Shown here in pieces: positions 26,140-37,534 of a DNA stretch of 64,000 nucleotides. The notes beneath the pieces were generated by a model. That model made no database searches. It was not told the DNA's origin and saw nothing but the letters and a program-made list of their open reading frames with translations. The stretch covers positions 186,001-250,000 of the forward strand of contig NC_014632.1 of assembly GCF_000165505.1 (NCBI RefSeq), read 5' to 3'. Position 1 is the first letter of the stretch; the number at the start of each line of letters is the position of its first letter. The stretch is from Ilyobacter polytropus DSM 2926 (GTDB taxonomy: Bacteria > Fusobacteriota > Fusobacteriia > Fusobacteriales > Fusobacteriaceae). The translations under genes were made by a program, and so were the position numbers.

Positions 26140-26208
26140 ATAAAGTACCGACTTTGATTTTATTGAAGTTTATAAAGTTATGTATTTGAAAAAATGACGG
26201 GGAGAGTA

Positions 26209-28002
26209 ATGAGATATAATTCCGAAGATGTAGACAAATTGATCGAAGAATTAAATATAGTTGAAGTAGTCGGGGAATATGTAGATCTAAAGAGATCAGG
26301 AGCTAATTTTAAAGGACTATGCCCATTTCATAAAGACAACAACCCCTCATTTGTAGTCAGTCCTTCGAAAAATATATGTAAATGTTTTGTTTGTGGAGCT
26401 GGCGGTAATTCTATAAAATTTTACTCAGATTACAACAAAGTCCCATTTGGACAGGCAATTAAGGATCTTTCTGAAAAGTACAAGATCAAAGTGAAGCCTG
26501 TAAAGGGGTATGATGTATTAAGAGACACCAATAAAAAGTATTATGAAATTTTAAATGACGCACTTGAATATTTTTGTGAAAAAATATTTTCCAATGAAGG
26601 CAGAGATGCCTTGGAGTACCTATCAAAAAGAAAGTTCAAACCTGATTTTATATCTGAAAATAAAATCGGATTTGCCCCTAGGGGATGGAGCAACCTCTAT
26701 GACTACCTTTTGAATAAAGGTCACGAATTAAACGACATAGTGACACTTGGATTGGTGAAAGAGGGTGAAAAAGGACACTATGATGCCTTCAGAGACAGAA
26801 TCATGTTTCCGATATATTCTCCATCAGGGAGTGTAATCGCTTTCGGTGGAAGAAGCTTAGAAGACAGAAAAGATATACCTAAATATATTAATTCACCGGA
26901 AAGCCCTGTTTTTCACAAGGGACAAAACTTATACGGGATAAAAGAAAAAGGAAATATAATAAGAAGAAAAGCTTATTCAATAGTTATGGAAGGATATATG
27001 GATGTACTTTCAGCTCATTCCTTTGGATTTGACGTAACAGTTGCCTCGTTAGGGACAGCTTTTACAGAAGATCAGGCAAAATTACTGAAAAGATATACAT
27101 CTAATGTTATACTAGCTTTTGATATGGATAATGCAGGTAGAGTTGCTGCTGAGAAATCGGGAATAATTCTAAAGTCCCACGGATTCAATATAAGGGTATT
27201 AGAACTTGAAAATGCCAAAGATCCTGATGAATTCTTGAAAAAATATGGTAAAAATGAATTTTTGAAATCTGTAAAAGAATCAAAGGAAATATTTGATTAC
27301 TTATACGAGTTTTATTCCAAAGAATATGATCTGACAAACTTGATGGCCAAACAAAATTTTGTTGATAGATTTAAAAGTTTTTTTCAATCAGTGGAAACTG
27401 ATCTGGAAAAAAGTCTCTATATAGACAAACTATCAAAGTCACTAGAAATTGATAAAGAACTTTTAAATGATATTCTTATTATCAATAATAAAAAAAGTAA
27501 AAAGAAAATAAAAAGTGAAATTTATAAACAAAAAGATTTCGGTGAAAAACGAAGCGAGATAATAGACAAACTGGAAATGGATACACTGAAAATAATATTA
27601 ACAAAACCGGAATATTATTCTTATTTTCAAGAAAAAAAAATAAAAAGTAACCTTTTTCATAAAATCATTGTCTTTTTTAGTGAGGATCACACGTCTGGAA
27701 ATGGTGTAAAGATGATTTTAAATAGTGATTCTTTTGAAGAGGAGGAAAAAAAGCAAATTATAGAGATTGCTGCATCAAGCATTGAGTATTCAGATGAAAA
27801 AAAACTTTTTAAAGATTTTAAAGAGGTATATCTAGGTTGGTTCAGAAGAGAAATAAAAGAGACTCTTGAAAAATATAAGATACACGGAGATATAGTTTCT
27901 TTTTTTAAAATAAGAAAAATAAGTGACAACATAGAAAAAACAGACACTGATCTTGAAGAATTAAAAAATCTTTATCGTGAATTCAAAACTTTTAATATAT
28001 AG
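26209..28002 (+). CDS. dnaG: DNA primase
   Basis: Makes RNA primers at replication forks and works with the DnaB helicase. The 597-residue product has the N-terminal CHC2 zinc finger (C38, H41, C59, C62), the primase core, and a TOPRIM fold with [13 protein letters not shown] and [11 protein letters not shown]. The C-terminal DnaB-binding part is lysine-rich and divergent. I chose the ATG at 26209 because GGGGAG (26199-26204) lies 5 bases upstream. An ATG 15 bases earlier lacks a ribosome site. rpoD follows after 17 bases, giving the familiar dnaG-rpoD order (without rpsU here). Confidence 0.96.
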
Positions 28003-28019: not shown

Positions 28020-29246
28020 ATGAAAGACTTTATTAGGAATGAGAAGGCGCGTGCTTTGATAAGAAAGTCAATAGAGGAGAAAGTTATAACTTTTGAGGAA
28101 GTAAATGAAGCGCTACAAGATGATTTTCCAGTTGATAAAATAGAATTCCTTATAAACGGAATGATAGATCAGGGTATAAAAATCATCAGGAGAGAGGAAC
28201 TTGAAAAAGTAAAGTCTGAAGATAAGGATGGAAAAACCTCTGTGAAAGCTGCTACTCCTAAAGTTGCAGTAAAAGTAGACGAGAAACTGGATTCAGAACA
28301 AGTAGAGACAAATAAAAAAGTAAAAAAAGTAGAGGGAGATTTTAACCCTGCGGAAATAGAAGAAGTAACTGAGGAAGAGTTATCTCCAGAAAAGCTTATG
28401 ACAATAAGTTCCGGAGTAGATGTAGACGAACCTATTAAGATGTATCTAAGGGAGATCGGACAGGTACCATTACTTACTCATAAGCAGGAGATCGAGCATG
28501 CAAAGAATTCTGCCGAAGGTGATGAATGGGCAACCCAACAGTTGGTAGAAGCCAACTTGAGACTTGTTGTAAGTATAGCAAAAAAGCACACAAACAGGGG
28601 ACTGAAATTGTTAGACCTTATTCAAGAGGGAAACATAGGATTGATGAAGGCTGTTGAAAAATTTGAATATACCAAAGGATATAAATTCTCGACTTATGCA
28701 ACTTGGTGGATAAGACAAGCTATAACTAGAGCGATAGCGGATCAAGGAAGAACTATAAGAATACCGGTGCATATGATAGAGACGATAAACAAGATAAAAA
28801 AGGAAAGCAGAATATACCTTCAGGAGACAGGAAAAGATGCAACACCAGAGGTTCTTGCTGAAAGATTGGGAATGGAATCTGAAAAAATAAAGGCTATACT
28901 TGAGATGAATCAAGATCCGATATCCTTAGAAACTCCAGTTGGAAGTGAGGAAGATAGTGAGTTAGGTGACTTTGTAGAAGATAACAAAATGCTCAGCCCT
29001 TACGAGCAAACAAATAGAAATCTTTTGAAAGAACAACTAGACGATGTACTTCAGAGTTTAAGTGAGAGAGAGGAAAAAGTCTTAAGATTTAGATATGGTT
29101 TAGATGACGGATGTCCTAGAACACTTGAGGAAGTCGGTAAAATATTTAAAGTTACTAGAGAAAGAATCAGACAGATAGAGGTAAAGGCTCTTAGGAAACT
29201 AAGACACCCAAGCAGAAGAAAAAAATTGGAAGATTTTAAAATGTAA
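28020..29246 (+). CDS. rpoD: Primary sigma factor sigma-70
   Basis: Directs RNA polymerase to housekeeping promoters. The 408 residues include region 1.1 (about 1-65), a short charged linker, region 1.2 ([19 protein letters not shown]), region 2 with [20 protein letters not shown] and [17 protein letters not shown], region 3, and region 4 with the -35 helix [20 protein letters not shown]. The -10 contacts Q and T of WWIRQAIT are present. This agrees with the TTGACA/TATAAT-type promoters seen through the window. The ATG follows GAGGAGG. A terminator separates it from the second sigma gene. Confidence 0.97.
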
Positions 29247-29249
29247 AAA

Positions 29250-29279
29250 AAAATTAGGAGTTTTAACTCCTAATTTTTA
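29250..29279 (+). terminator. Terminator after rpoD
   Basis: Stem AAATTAGGAGTT/AACTCCTAATTT (29251-29274) followed by TTTAT. Its tail runs into the promoter of the next gene. Confidence 0.85.
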
Positions 29280-29280
29280 T

Positions 29281-29309
29281 TTGTTCTCAAATTATTATAG
29301 GTGTATAAT
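29281..29309 (+). promoter_or_regulatory. Promoter of the second sigma factor gene
   Basis: TTGTTC (29281-29286), 17 bases, TATAAT (29304-29309). It starts right at the end of the rpoD terminator, so the downstream genes can be controlled apart from dnaG-rpoD. Confidence 0.7.
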
Positions 29310-29337
29310 AAAAAATATTGCTTCAAGGAGTTGGAAA

Positions 29338-30327
29338 ATGTCTTTAAATATAAAAAAATTAAAGAAAAAAATTAAAGAAAAGGTACTTCTTCAGAAGGAT
29401 TTTGAAGAGTTTGTATGCCAAGAGTGCAGCGAAGAGAAGGATTTTCAGGACCTTATTGACCTTATTTTTAAAGAGAATATAGAAATACAGGAGAATGAAG
29501 AAAATTATGAAGATAATATAGGAGACGGTTATTATAGTGAAGAGATATTAGAACAGTATTTTCATGATATCTCACTGTATACTCCGATACCAAAAGAAAA
29601 AGAAAAAGATATAGTAAAAAAAGCTCAGGATGGTGATGAAGAGGCACGTGAGATGCTTGTAACTTCTAACTTGAAACTAGTCGCTAAGATTGCTATGAAA
29701 TATTCCAAATCAGGTGTTAATTACATTGACCTTATACAAGACGGAACAATAGGACTTATAGCTGCCATTGATAAATATGATCTTTCTAAGGGTCATAGTT
29801 TCACATCTTATTCTGTATGGTGGATAAAAAGGGAGATAATAAACTCTATAGCGAATAGAATAAATGCAATAAAAATACCTAGTTATGTCTATCTTATGAA
29901 TAAAAAAATAAGAATATTTGAAGATGATTTTATGGAAAGAAATAACAAGAAACCCAGCTATCAAGAAATATCTGAGGCATTGAATTTGTCATTAGAGGAA
30001 GTTGAAAAAATGAAAGAAGCATCTGAAATAGGTGTAGGCGGATTTGCAGATGGCAATGAACCAGATCTAGGTGACTTTAACACAGTTGATCAGATAGATA
30101 AGGAACTTAATCTTCTAGAAGAGAGAAGTAAAATATCAAATTTAATGAGAAAAATATCTCCTGAAGAGCAAAAGGTAGTGGAAATGTATTATGGTCTTGA
30201 TGACAATAAAAGATTAGGGTTCAAAGAGATATCCAAAATAATGGGTGTTTCAGTTGAGAAAGTTAAGTTTTTAAAGGAAAGGGCAATACTCAAGCTAAAA
30301 TGTGCTAATGAGAGGATGTGGGGCTAG
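29338..30327 (+). CDS. Second sigma-70 family factor, divergent in DNA-contact residues
   Basis: A 329-residue sigma factor of the RpoD type without region 1.1. It starts at the ATG after AAGGAG (29324-29329). An acidic N-terminal stretch (about residues 20-65) replaces region 1.1. Region 1.2 is EQYFHDISLYTPIPKEKE. Region 2 has YIDLIQDGTIGLIAAIDKYD and FTSYSVWWIKREIINSI. Region 3 and a region 4 ending KLKCANERMWG follow. Compared with the RpoD in this window, the -10 contacts Q and T become R and I (WWIKREII), and the -35 helix [14 protein letters not shown] becomes VSVEKVKFLKERAI. I infer a different promoter target. It could be a stationary-phase or stress factor, like RpoS or group 2/3 sigmas in role but not by clear descent. 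No anti-sigma gene is adjacent. Confidence 0.85.
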   Translation: MSLNIKKLKKKIKEKVLLQKDFEEFVCQECSEEKDFQDLIDLIFKENIEIQENEENYEDNIGDGYYSEEILEQYFHDISLYTPIPKEKEKDIVKKAQDGDEEAREMLVTSNLKLVAKIAMKYSKSGVNYIDLIQDGTIGLIAAIDKYDLSKGHSFTSYSVWWIKREIINSIANRINAIKIPSYVYLMNKKIRIFEDDFMERNNKKPSYQEISEALNLSLEEVEKMKEASEIGVGGFADGNEPDLGDFNTVDQIDKELNLLEERSKISNLMRKISPEEQKVVEMYYGLDDNKRLGFKEISKIMGVSVEKVKFLKERAILKLKCANERMWG

Positions 30328-31394
30328 TGAGGCTTTCTGAAATAACAAAGAAATTGGAAAAGGCTTTTCCTAAAGATATAGCAGAATCTTGGGATAATGT
30401 GGGACTATTAGTAGGTGAAAAAAACAAAGATATAAAAAAAATACAGATATCGCTAGATGCTACAGAAAAAGTGATAGAAGAGGCCGTCAAAAATAATGCA
30501 GACCTCATAATAACTCATCACCCTCTTATATTTTCACCATTAAAAGCAATAAATGATTCTACTCTACTTGGAAAAAAAATAATGAAACTTATAAAAAATG
30601 ATATAGCATTGTATTCGATGCATACAAATTTAGATTCGGCTGAAAATGGACTGAACAAATATGTAGCCGAAATTATAGGTGCTAGGGAATCTAAAATTAT
30701 AGCTGAAAACTACCGTGATGTCTATAAACTTGCTGTATATGTCCCGAAGGAAAATCATAAAGAGGTATTAAAAAAAGTCCAGGAAACAGGGGTTTCACTG
30801 GAAGGTTATGATGATGTGTCTTATTCTACCGAATGTATAGAAAGATACAGAATATCAGGAGAAGACAATGCACATACTGTCGATAATATAAAGGTTGAGG
30901 TTATAGGGGAAAAGGGAAAGATGTTTCAGCTTTTAAATGAAATAAGAAAGATACATCCCTATGACCAAGTTCCTTATGAAATTTTTTCTGTGGAAAACAG
31001 ATATCTAAAGGGGGGAATAGGAAGAGTATTTTCTCTTGAAAAGCCAGTTTTATTTAAAGAGTACGTCAACCTCGTAAAAGAAAAGTTATCAATAGAAAAT
31101 CTCAGAATAGTAGCAGAAAATGAGGAAAAGTCAGTAAAAAAAGTGGCAGTTGTAAACGGTTCTGGAATGAGTTTTTTTAAAAAAATAAAAAAACTAGGCG
31201 TTGATGTTTTTGTTACTGGAGATATAAAATACCATGAGGCTTTAGATGCAGCAGAAGAAGGACTGAACTTAATTGACCTGGGTCATTATGAGAGTGAGCA
31301 TTTTTTTAACCGTTTAGTTGTCCGTGAACTTATTGAACTTACAGATGTTGAAACTTATATTATGAATGAAAAACCAATTTTTAAATATAGATAA
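30327..31394 (+). CDS. NIF3-family dinuclear-metal protein (YqfO/YbgI type)
   Basis: A widespread cytoplasmic hexamer with a two-metal centre. It is sometimes named GTP cyclohydrolase 1 type 2, but its reaction is not settled. The 355-residue product has the N-terminal half with ESWDNVGLLVG and the metal ligands of ITHHPLIFSP and MHTNLDSAENGLN. A PII-like middle domain (about residues 130-235, as in Bacillus YqfO) is inserted. The C-terminal half has VFVTGDIKYHEALDA and LIDLGHYESEHF. The GTG at 30327 shares one base with the preceding TAG, a typical coupled start; a GTG 9 bases upstream is possible. It pairs with the sigma factor gene. In other bacteria NIF3 genes often follow rpoD, so this order is conserved. 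Confidence 0.9.
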   Translation: MRLSEITKKLEKAFPKDIAESWDNVGLLVGEKNKDIKKIQISLDATEKVIEEAVKNNADLIITHHPLIFSPLKAINDSTLLGKKIMKLIKNDIALYSMHTNLDSAENGLNKYVAEIIGARESKIIAENYRDVYKLAVYVPKENHKEVLKKVQETGVSLEGYDDVSYSTECIERYRISGEDNAHTVDNIKVEVIGEKGKMFQLLNEIRKIHPYDQVPYEIFSVENRYLKGGIGRVFSLEKPVLFKEYVNLVKEKLSIENLRIVAENEEKSVKKVAVVNGSGMSFFKKIKKLGVDVFVTGDIKYHEALDAAEEGLNLIDLGHYESEHFFNRLVVRELIELTDVETYIMNEKPIFKYR

Positions 31395-31405
31395 GGAGAT
31401 GCTTG

Positions 31406-31966
31406 ATGCGTAAAAAAATATTAGTTTTATTTATTTTGATTTTATCTGTGGTTAGTTTTTCTCAAATCACTGATAATCTAGGTTCTTTTTCAGATGAAGA
31501 GACAAAAAGAATAGAAACAAAAATGGAAGAAATATCTAAAAACAGTGAACTTGACTTGTATATTAATACATATAAGGCAGGGGAAAATACACAATTGAAA
31601 GTACTTGAAAAAAGTGTTATAATCGATATGGTAAAAGTAGATAATGAACATTTAAATGTAAAACTGAGTTTCAGTCAGGACATAGATATAAGCTCCTATC
31701 AAGAGGAGCTAGAAAATGTTCTTGGGAATTTGGGAAACCTTATTACCGAAGGAGAAAATGAAAAATATACCTTAGAACTCTTGAATAGCCTAGAAGACAT
31801 TTTTAAAAGAATGGGAGAAGATAAAGAAATTCAAAAAGAAAAATTTTCCAAAAGAGGGAATTTAAACGGAGTATTTTTGTTTCTTGTTTTTCTTGGGATA
31901 GGTGTTTTTGTAGGAAAAAATAAAAAAGTACGAGAGTTTTTTTCTAAAATTATTAAAAATAGGTAG
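31406..31966 (+). CDS. Small exported membrane-anchored protein, possibly TPM-domain-like
   Basis: 186 residues starting at the ATG after AAGGAG. An N-terminal signal segment (about residues 4-20, LVLFILILSVVSFSQ) and one C-terminal membrane helix (about 150-168, GVFLFLVFLGIGVFVG) are followed by a basic tail. The segment between, with SDEETKRIETKMEEISKNSELDLYI split over two lines, resembles the start of TPM/YgcG domains (turn-over/assembly proteins on the outer face). The usual TPM end is not recognisable, so this is tentative. It follows the NIF3 gene by 11 bases. Its last 5 bases overlap the RNase P RNA. Confidence 0.7.
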   Translation: MRKKILVLFILILSVVSFSQITDNLGSFSDEETKRIETKMEEISKNSELDLYINTYKAGENTQLKVLEKSVIIDMVKVDNEHLNVKLSFSQDIDISSYQEELENVLGNLGNLITEGENEKYTLELLNSLEDIFKRMGEDKEIQKEKFSKRGNLNGVFLFLVFLGIGVFVGKNKKVREFFSKIIKNR

Positions 31967-32294
31967 TAAGGTTAATCGCTGCCTGTGAAAACAGGGAGAG
32001 GAAAGTCCGGGCTCCGCAGGGCAGAGAGGGCAGTTAACGGCTGCTGAGGGAAACCTTAAGGAAAGTGCCACAGAAAATAGACCGCCACTTGCTGGTAAGG
32101 GTGAAAAGGTGGTGTAAGAGACCACCAGTTTCTTAAGAGATTAAGAAAGCTTGGTAAACCCCCTCTGGAGCAAGGCTAAATAGGAGAGAATATGGGCTGC
32201 TCGTCCACTCTCAGGGTAAGCTGCTAGAGTCGATAAGTAATTATAGACCTAGATAAATGATTAACTCAGACAAAACCCGGCTTATTTTACTACC
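31962..32294 (+). ncRNA. rnpB: RNase P RNA
   Basis: The catalytic RNA that trims the 5' ends of tRNAs. The ends pair as P1 (GGTAGTAA at 31962-31969 with TTACTACC at 32287-32294). The universal core is clear: GAGGAAAGTCCGGGCTCC near the 5' end and AGACAAAACCCGGCTTA near the 3' end. It overlaps the stop of the upstream gene. No convincing promoter was seen, so it may be made from the upstream transcript or a promoter inside the coding region. Confidence 0.95.
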
Positions 32295-32313
32295 TTTTTT
32301 AGATATAACTATG

Positions 32314-32688: not shown

Positions 32689-34210
<1,522 letters not shown>

Positions 34211-34412
34211 CTAAGGAGCACAGACGACCTTCTCTATTTATTTGGTATTGTTCTTTCCTGTAAAGGTTTGAATAATTACTGAGATGGACATTGGAAACTA
34301 TATAGTAGAGAAATCAACATAAAATTTTTTTTCTGACGAAATTTTCGAGAATGGATTTATTTCATTCGAAGTAAAAATTGTCAAGAAAGAGAGTTAGCTG
34401 ATGAACAATTTA
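34211..34412 (+). other. 16S-23S spacer, operon 2
   Basis: 202 bases without tRNA and with the same processing arms as copy 1. A few substitutions lie between about 34336 and 34382. Confidence 0.8.
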
Positions 34413-37343
<2,931 letters not shown>

Positions 37344-37416
37344 AAATCTACTATATAGTTTTGAATGTCCATGACAGACAAAAGAATATGATATCAATAT
37401 ATAAATGTTGATAACA

Positions 37417-37534
37417 GCTTGGTGAGAATAGCTGTAGGGGTACACCTGGTCACATTCCGAACCCAGAAGTTAAGCCTGCATACGCTGAAAGTACTTGAGG
37501 GGCAGCCCTCTGGGAGGATAGGTACTTGCCAAGC
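37417..37534 (+). rRNA. rrf: 5S ribosomal RNA, operon 2
   Basis: Identical by eye to the two 5S genes of operon 1. Followed directly by a run of eight T that probably ends the operon. No tRNA follows. Confidence 0.95.

What the first reader, a model, noticed from the sequence alone, without database searches (positions are those of the whole stretch)
29338..30327. Second RpoD-type sigma factor with changed promoter-contact residues
Next to rpoD, behind its own promoter, lies a sigma-70 family gene without region 1.1. The residues that read the -10 and -35 boxes in RpoD are changed: Q and T of region 2.4 become R and I, and the -35 helix [10 protein letters not shown] becomes VSVEKVKFLK. Core-binding regions are well kept. 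It may drive a separate, unknown regulon, perhaps one tied to the NIF3 and envelope genes behind it.
Basis: partly seen in the sequence, partly recalled or inferred. Interest (0 to 1): 0.65.

Follow-up and report, generated by a model that had tools for sequence, protein, structure and literature searches.

The report
Second sigma factor beside rpoD
A second RpoD-like transcription factor sits next to rpoD across the phylum Fusobacteriota, looks like a working sigma factor with altered promoter reading here, and has lost its DNA-reading parts in several relatives while natural selection still keeps the gene.

Summary
The gene is real: a 329-aa sigma-70 family protein (29338-30327, +) with its own conserved TATAAT promoter behind the rpoD terminator, and promoter-contact residues changed as described (Q437R, T440I, H455Y, E458L, R584V, Q589F in E. 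coli numbering). "No region 1.1" does not hold: a diverged 1.1-like domain shows by profile comparison. It is not a local oddity. An orthologue lies beside rpoD and/or nif3 in 27 of the 28 Fusobacteriota genera inspected; those tested form their own clade (100/98), outside RpoD, RpoS and RpoH. In Ilyobacter and six other genera, DNA-melting residues are invariant and the new contact residues largely shared, which fits a true sigma factor of changed specificity (prediction: C at -12, A at -31, no TGn). Elsewhere the protein has eroded, probably at least three times. The Fusobacterium/Cetobacterium type keeps region 2 and loses region 4 (34/34 vs 0/34); the Leptotrichia type mostly does the reverse (3/15 vs 12/15). 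dN/dS stays at 0.04-0.20, so the eroded forms still do something, plausibly as RNA-polymerase-binding regulators. The link to NIF3 is inherited gene order, also seen in Bacillota. Targets and activity are untested.

The parts
29249..29278 (+). intrinsic terminator of rpoD, separating the two sigma genes
   Evidence: 13-pair stem followed by a T-rich tail; a hairpin lies in the same place in most of the orthologous loci printed
29281..29309 (+). promoter of the second sigma gene: TTGTTC - 17 nt - TATAAT
   Evidence: hexamers and spacing identical in three genomes of the genus, L008-L010; looks RpoD-type, so autoregulation is not indicated
29325..29330 (+). Shine-Dalgarno AAGGAG
   Evidence: read directly
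29338..30327 (+). SIG2: second RpoD-like sigma-70 family protein, 329 aa
   Evidence: Pfam and NCBIfam, solved-structure sequence matches, AlphaFold model with RpoD/RpoS matches
29359..29496 (+). diverged region 1.1-like domain (residues ~8-53)
   Evidence: hhalign E 3e-5 and 1.7e-6 against RpoD N-termini, controls >= 0.059; helix-strand-helix-helix-strand order in the full-length model
29656..29853 (+). sigma region 2 (residues 107-172)
   Evidence: PF04542, 4.8e-18
29722..29769 (+). region 2.2 core-binding motif YIDLIQDGTIGLIAAI (residues 129-144)
   Evidence: aligned on RpoD; D403, Q406, G408, G411 equivalents invariant in the 11 intact orthologues
29800..29853 (+). regions 2.3/2.4: melting residues Y158 W161 W162 kept; Q437->R165, T440->I168
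   Evidence: alignment and counts
30130..30312 (+). sigma region 4 (residues 265-325)
   Evidence: PF04545, 1.1e-11, residues 270-321
30247..30276 (+). -35 recognition helix VSVEKVKFLK (residues 304-313); R584->V306, Q589->F311, E585 kept, R588->K
   Evidence: alignment and counts
28020..29246 (+). rpoD, with regions 1.1 to 4, the paralogue used for comparison
   Evidence: Pfam and NCBIfam
30327..31394 (+). nif3/DUF34 gene; its GTG start overlaps the SIG2 stop by one base (TAGTG)
   Evidence: PF01784, 3.5e-87; sequence
26194..28002 (+). dnaG, upstream neighbour in the conserved order
   Evidence: Pfam

Best explanation
SIG2 is a sigma-70 family protein found here only in the Fusobacteriota, old enough to be shared by almost all genera of the phylum, and kept beside rpoD and nif3. 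In the genome of this window it most likely still works as a sigma factor: it binds core RNA polymerase through region 2.2 and region 4.1, melts DNA with the kept Tyr/Trp/Trp residues, and reads a promoter that differs from RpoD's. From the known effects of single changes in E. coli sigma-70, the prediction is a -10 box with C instead of T at -12, A instead of C at -31 with G still favoured at -33, and no use of an extended -10 TGn. The gene itself is driven by an RpoD-type promoter. In Fusobacterium/Cetobacterium, in the related genus g14 and in Leptotrichiaceae, the orthologue has independently lost parts of the DNA-reading machinery and is inferred to act there through polymerase binding rather than promoter reading. 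Shown: presence, gene order, residue pattern, clade, purifying selection, loss of recognisable domains. Inferred: promoter sequence, polymerase binding, activity and regulon.
For: Sigma regions found. In 11 intact orthologues down to 30% identity, the equivalents of Y430, W433, W434 and of the core-binding residues D403, Q406, G408, G411 are invariant; Q437 is K/R in 11 of 11, T440 is I in 10 of 11, H455 is Y in 9, E458 is L in 10, R584 is A or V in 9. Literature: Q437H and T440I suppress a -12 T-to-C change, R584A prefers A:T at -31, H455/E458 read TGn (PMC2613000). Own clade 100/98 outside RpoD, RpoS and RpoH. dN/dS 0.08-0.11 in intact pairs. Eroded members are tied to the intact ones by full-length profile comparison, 4.6e-38 and 3.1e-20, and by gene order.
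Against: No activity, binding or target data exist for the intact type in the sources held. A crude whole-genome count of TTGA-N18-20-CATAAT against a wrong spacing shows no clear excess (own genome 65 vs 53, three-species genus 150 vs 127), so the predicted promoter is not supported by computation. The substitution here is Q437R, whereas the E. coli result is for Q437H. Relatives keep the gene after losing promoter-reading parts, so promoter reading may not be its main task here either.
Confidence: 0.62

Rival explanations
1. SIG2 is, in all lineages including this one, mainly a regulator that sits on core RNA polymerase: it competes with RpoD or parks polymerase, using the region 1.1-like domain, region 2.2 and region 4.1, and promoter reading is dispensable.
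For: The region 2.2 Q406 and G408 equivalents are invariant in 34 of 34 Fusobacterium-type proteins although the W433, Q589 and other DNA-contact positions are scattered or replaced; DNA-reading parts lost probably three times with dN/dS 0.04-0.20; FN1317 and FN1318 of F. nucleatum are both listed as sigma factors found by proteomics, with FN1319 under DNA replication (PMC4234264).
Against: In the intact genera the DNA-melting residues are invariant across sequences only 30-60% identical, which needs an explanation if DNA is not touched. Leptotrichia-type proteins keep region 4 and mostly lose a recognisable region 2, which does not fit one common binding mode.
Confidence: 0.2
2. SIG2 is an ordinary group 2 sigma factor that uses the same promoters as RpoD.
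For: Closest named families are RpoD/RpoS-type group 1 and 2 sigmas, and it has 1.1- and 1.2-like parts.
Against: Group 2 sigmas keep the promoter-contact residues (general knowledge); here both -12 readers, both TGn readers and two -35 readers are replaced, largely the same way in seven genera.
Confidence: 0.07
3. The eroded forms have become decoys for an anti-sigma factor, as PhyR does in alphaproteobacteria.
For: Sigma-like proteins without DNA reading have a known precedent in PhyR sigma-factor mimicry (papers listed); Fusobacterium-type members keep a recognisable sigma region 2 only.
Against: No receiver domain in the Pfam scans and no anti-sigma gene recognised beside it; Leptotrichia-type members keep the other domain.
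Confidence: 0.06
4. A decaying duplicate without function.
For: High divergence in many genera.
Against: dN/dS 0.04-0.20 in 24 pairs, in the range of nif3; kept in 27 of 28 genera inspected.
Confidence: 0.02

Closest known systems
RpoD / SigA (group 1 primary sigma factor)
   Same: Domain order 1.1-like, 1.2, 2, 3, 4; core-binding region 2.2; melting Tyr/Trp/Trp; lies next to dnaG-rpoD
   Different: Promoter-contact residues of 2.4, 3.0 and 4.2 replaced; about 29% identical; separate clade; a joint clade with Fusobacteriota RpoD rejected, p-AU 0.005
RpoS and other group 2 sigma factors
   Same: Length, no long non-conserved region; scores about like RpoD with RpoS models
   Different: Not in the RpoS clade; DNA-contact residues not RpoD-like
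Duplicate rpoD-like genes in tandem in Clostridia (L107, L138, L142)
   Same: Second RpoD-like gene directly beside rpoD after dnaG
   Different: These keep RpoD's promoter-contact residues (WWIKQA/RQS, TRERVRQIE)
PhyR sigma-factor mimicry
   Same: A sigma-like protein that no longer reads promoters, as supposed here for the eroded orthologues
   Different: PhyR is an ECF-like domain fused to a receiver (general knowledge); SIG2 has no receiver

Membership tests
sigma-70 family | Region 2 and region 4 present | tested here: met
   PF04542 and PF04545 over cut-off; 11 of 11 intact orthologues
sigma-70 family | Core-binding residues of region 2.2 | tested here: met
   D403, Q406, G408, G411 equivalents kept; N409 is T
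sigma-70 family | Directs promoter-specific initiation | not testable with these tools
   needs in vitro transcription
group 1 (RpoD/SigA) | Region 1.1 | tested here: inconclusive
   Pfam PF03979 not found in this protein, but profile-profile match E 3e-5 / 1.7e-6
group 1 (RpoD/SigA) | Curated equivalog score | tested here: not met
   TIGR02393 149 bits against a cut-off of 354
group 2 / RpoS | DNA-contact residues like RpoD | tested here: not met
   Q437, T440, H455, E458, R584, Q589 all replaced
group 2 / RpoS | Position in the RpoS clade of a tree | tested here: not met
   own clade 100/98
group 3 (RpoH, SigB/F/G type) | Curated family score and position with RpoH in a tree | tested here: not met
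   rpoH_proteo 101 of 323 bits, SigBFG 116 of 234; not beside E. coli RpoH, which is a very long branch
ECF (group 4) | Regions 2 and 4 only, region 3 absent | tested here: not met
   region 3 found in 11 of 11 at E <= 10; 8.1e-5 in this protein though below the curated cut-off

The most novel reading that the evidence does not exclude
A phylum-wide second sigma factor that has, several times independently, been turned from a promoter-reading factor into a sigma-shaped regulator of RNA polymerase that no longer reads promoters, with different lineages discarding different domains (region 4 in Fusobacterium/Cetobacterium, region 2 in Leptotrichiaceae) while the gene stays in place and under purifying selection.
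Probability: 0.45. Interest if true: 0.78.

Novelty: new variant of a known kind. Interest (0 to 1): 0.6.

Why it matters
Fusobacteriota include Fusobacterium nucleatum, which is linked to periodontitis and cancer, and I found no paper describing what its second rpoD-adjacent 'sigma factor' (apparently FN1317) does. If the eroded orthologues bind core polymerase without reading promoters, they would be a natural, repeated experiment on how a sigma factor can lose DNA recognition and stay useful. The intact form in Ilyobacter gives a concrete promoter prediction that can be tested in a tube.

Tried and rejected
(1) Promoter search: TTGA-N18-20-CATAAT against a wrong spacing in 11 genomes gave no clear excess and cannot separate SIG2 from RpoD use; not pursued. 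(3) A single-sequence model of the N-terminal 60 residues was poor, pLDDT 61, two helices only, so the region 1.1 claim rests on profiles. The full-length model was built on an alignment that contains RpoD sequences, so its fold match is not independent. (4) NIF3/envelope regulon: rejected, same order in Bacillota without SIG2. (5) Recent duplication of the Fusobacteriota rpoD: a joint clade is rejected (p-AU 0.005), but long branches limit this.

Full report
What is there. Genes run dnaG (26194-28002), rpoD (28020-29246), SIG2 (29338-30327), nif3 (30327-31394) and a small gene that starts with a signal-peptide-like stretch (31403-31966), all on the plus strand. An intrinsic terminator (29249-29278) closes rpoD. 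SIG2 then has its own TTGTTC-17-TATAAT promoter, identical at these positions in three genomes of the genus. The SIG2 stop and the nif3 start overlap by one base (TAGTG).

What the protein is. Pfam finds sigma regions 2 and 4 over their cut-offs, with region 3 just below. NCBIfam gives RpoD- and RpoS-type models far below their equivalog cut-offs, and the general sigma-70 superfamily model above its cut-off. The best solved-structure matches are SigA proteins. The claim that region 1.1 is missing is not: residues about 8-60 match RpoD region 1.1 by profile comparison (E 3e-5; 1.7e-6 against Bacillota RpoD), while 13 control windows give 0.059 or worse. In Fusobacterium- and Leptotrichia-type orthologues the direct comparison with RpoD fails, but their N-termini align with the intact type in the full-length comparison.

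Phylum-wide occurrence. Searching 98 Fusobacteriota genomes and reading about 70 loci around rpoD or nif3 shows an orthologue between rpoD and nif3, or directly before nif3 where rpoD has moved away, in 27 of the 28 genera inspected. The members of genera g23, g26, g27 and of family f6 are so diverged that position carries most of the identification. Genus g28 has rpoD without it, and no nif3 was found there; g17 was not inspected. Other genus names used here (Fusobacterium, Leptotrichia and so on) are my inference from genome sizes and groupings, not a test.

Kinds of orthologue. Intact type (genera g1, g8, g9, g10, g13 and one genus in each of two further families): 11 of 11 have sigma regions 2 and 4, the melting residues are invariant and the changed contact residues are largely shared. 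Fusobacterium/Cetobacterium type: 34 of 34 match region 2 and none matches region 4. Group g14 is alike, 7 of 7 and none. Leptotrichia type: 12 of 15 match region 4 and 3 of 15 match region 2. Full-length profile comparisons tie them together: intact against Fusobacterium type 4.6e-38, intact against Leptotrichia type 3.1e-20, and the two eroded types against each other 6.6e-17. On an rpoD+nif3 species tree the label needs four changes; three rows with little data sit out of place, and without them three erosions remain: g14, the Fusobacterium/Cetobacterium clade, and Leptotrichiaceae with f6 (short search, no bootstrap, and its strongly supported branches alone force only one change, so 'three' is likely rather than shown). 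I take the intact state as ancestral because it shares its melting residues with RpoD.

Selection. Nei-Gojobori dN/dS for SIG2 in 24 species pairs is 0.04-0.20, including eroded ones, against 0.01-0.12 for rpoD and 0.07-0.33 for nif3. The eroded orthologues are therefore not pseudogenes. In F. nucleatum, FN1317 and FN1318 are both called sigma factors and reported among regulators that changed in a proteomics study, and FN1319 is listed with DNA replication (PMC4234264); gene order suggests that FN1317 is the orthologue, an inference.

Place in the sigma family. In a careful maximum-likelihood tree with RpoD, RpoS, RpoH and other sigmas, SIG2 (11 intact and 3 g14 rows; the most eroded were left out) is one clade at 100/98. 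Holding SIG2 with Fusobacteriota RpoD is rejected at p-AU 0.005, with long branches as a caveat. The other alternative sigmas of the phylum are separate. Outside the phylum, no hit stands out above ordinary RpoD-level similarity.

How it most likely works. In E. coli, Q437H and T440I suppress a T-to-C change at -12, R584A prefers A:T at -31, E585 and R588 bear on -33, and H455 and E458 read TGn (PMC2613000). Applied to SIG2 this predicts C at -12, A at -31, G kept at -33 and no TGn. This is inference; a crude motif count did not show it. Because the melting residues are kept over deep divergence, I judge the Ilyobacter protein a working sigma factor of changed specificity. The eroded relatives argue that the family can also act without promoter reading, most simply by binding polymerase.

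What the neighbours say. Bacillota and Mycoplasmatota loci without SIG2 also have rpoD followed within about 1 kb by nif3 (L100, L103, L105, L113, L115, L122, L126, L135), with what looks like a TrmK-type methyltransferase after rpoD in L138 (my reading). The SIG2-nif3 pair is therefore inherited order and gives no evidence for a regulon.

Noticed in passing
L015 and L016, between rpoD and SIG2: In genus g10 two tRNA genes (Thr-TGT and Glu-TTC) sit between rpoD and SIG2.
   Followed up: partly
window 31960-32300 and 32689-37534: RNase P RNA (class A) lies directly after the small gene that follows nif3, and a complete rRNA operon (16S, 23S, 5S) comes next.
   Followed up: partly
L006 and L007 (own genome, C1:184111 and C2:242304): Two similar short sigma factors (open frames of 209 and 223 aa) that look SigH-like, one on each large contig; the name is from memory, not tested.
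   Followed up: no
G003:C1:186243, C6:4649, C6:8669, C6:25910: One Cetobacterium genome carries four sigma genes with identical match scores, three of them on one contig, as if on a repeated element.
   Followed up: no
L107, L138, L142: Clostridia genomes with two rpoD-like genes in tandem after dnaG, both keeping RpoD-type promoter contacts.
   Followed up: partly
L040, L045, L046, L066, L094: Several eroded orthologues carry histidine-rich stretches (such as HHHEHTHEEEQHH), in most of them in the linker between the region 2 and region 4 parts, perhaps metal-binding.
   Followed up: no
window 31403-31966: Small protein with a signal-peptide-like start and no Pfam or NCBIfam match, kept after nif3 across much of the phylum.
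   Followed up: no
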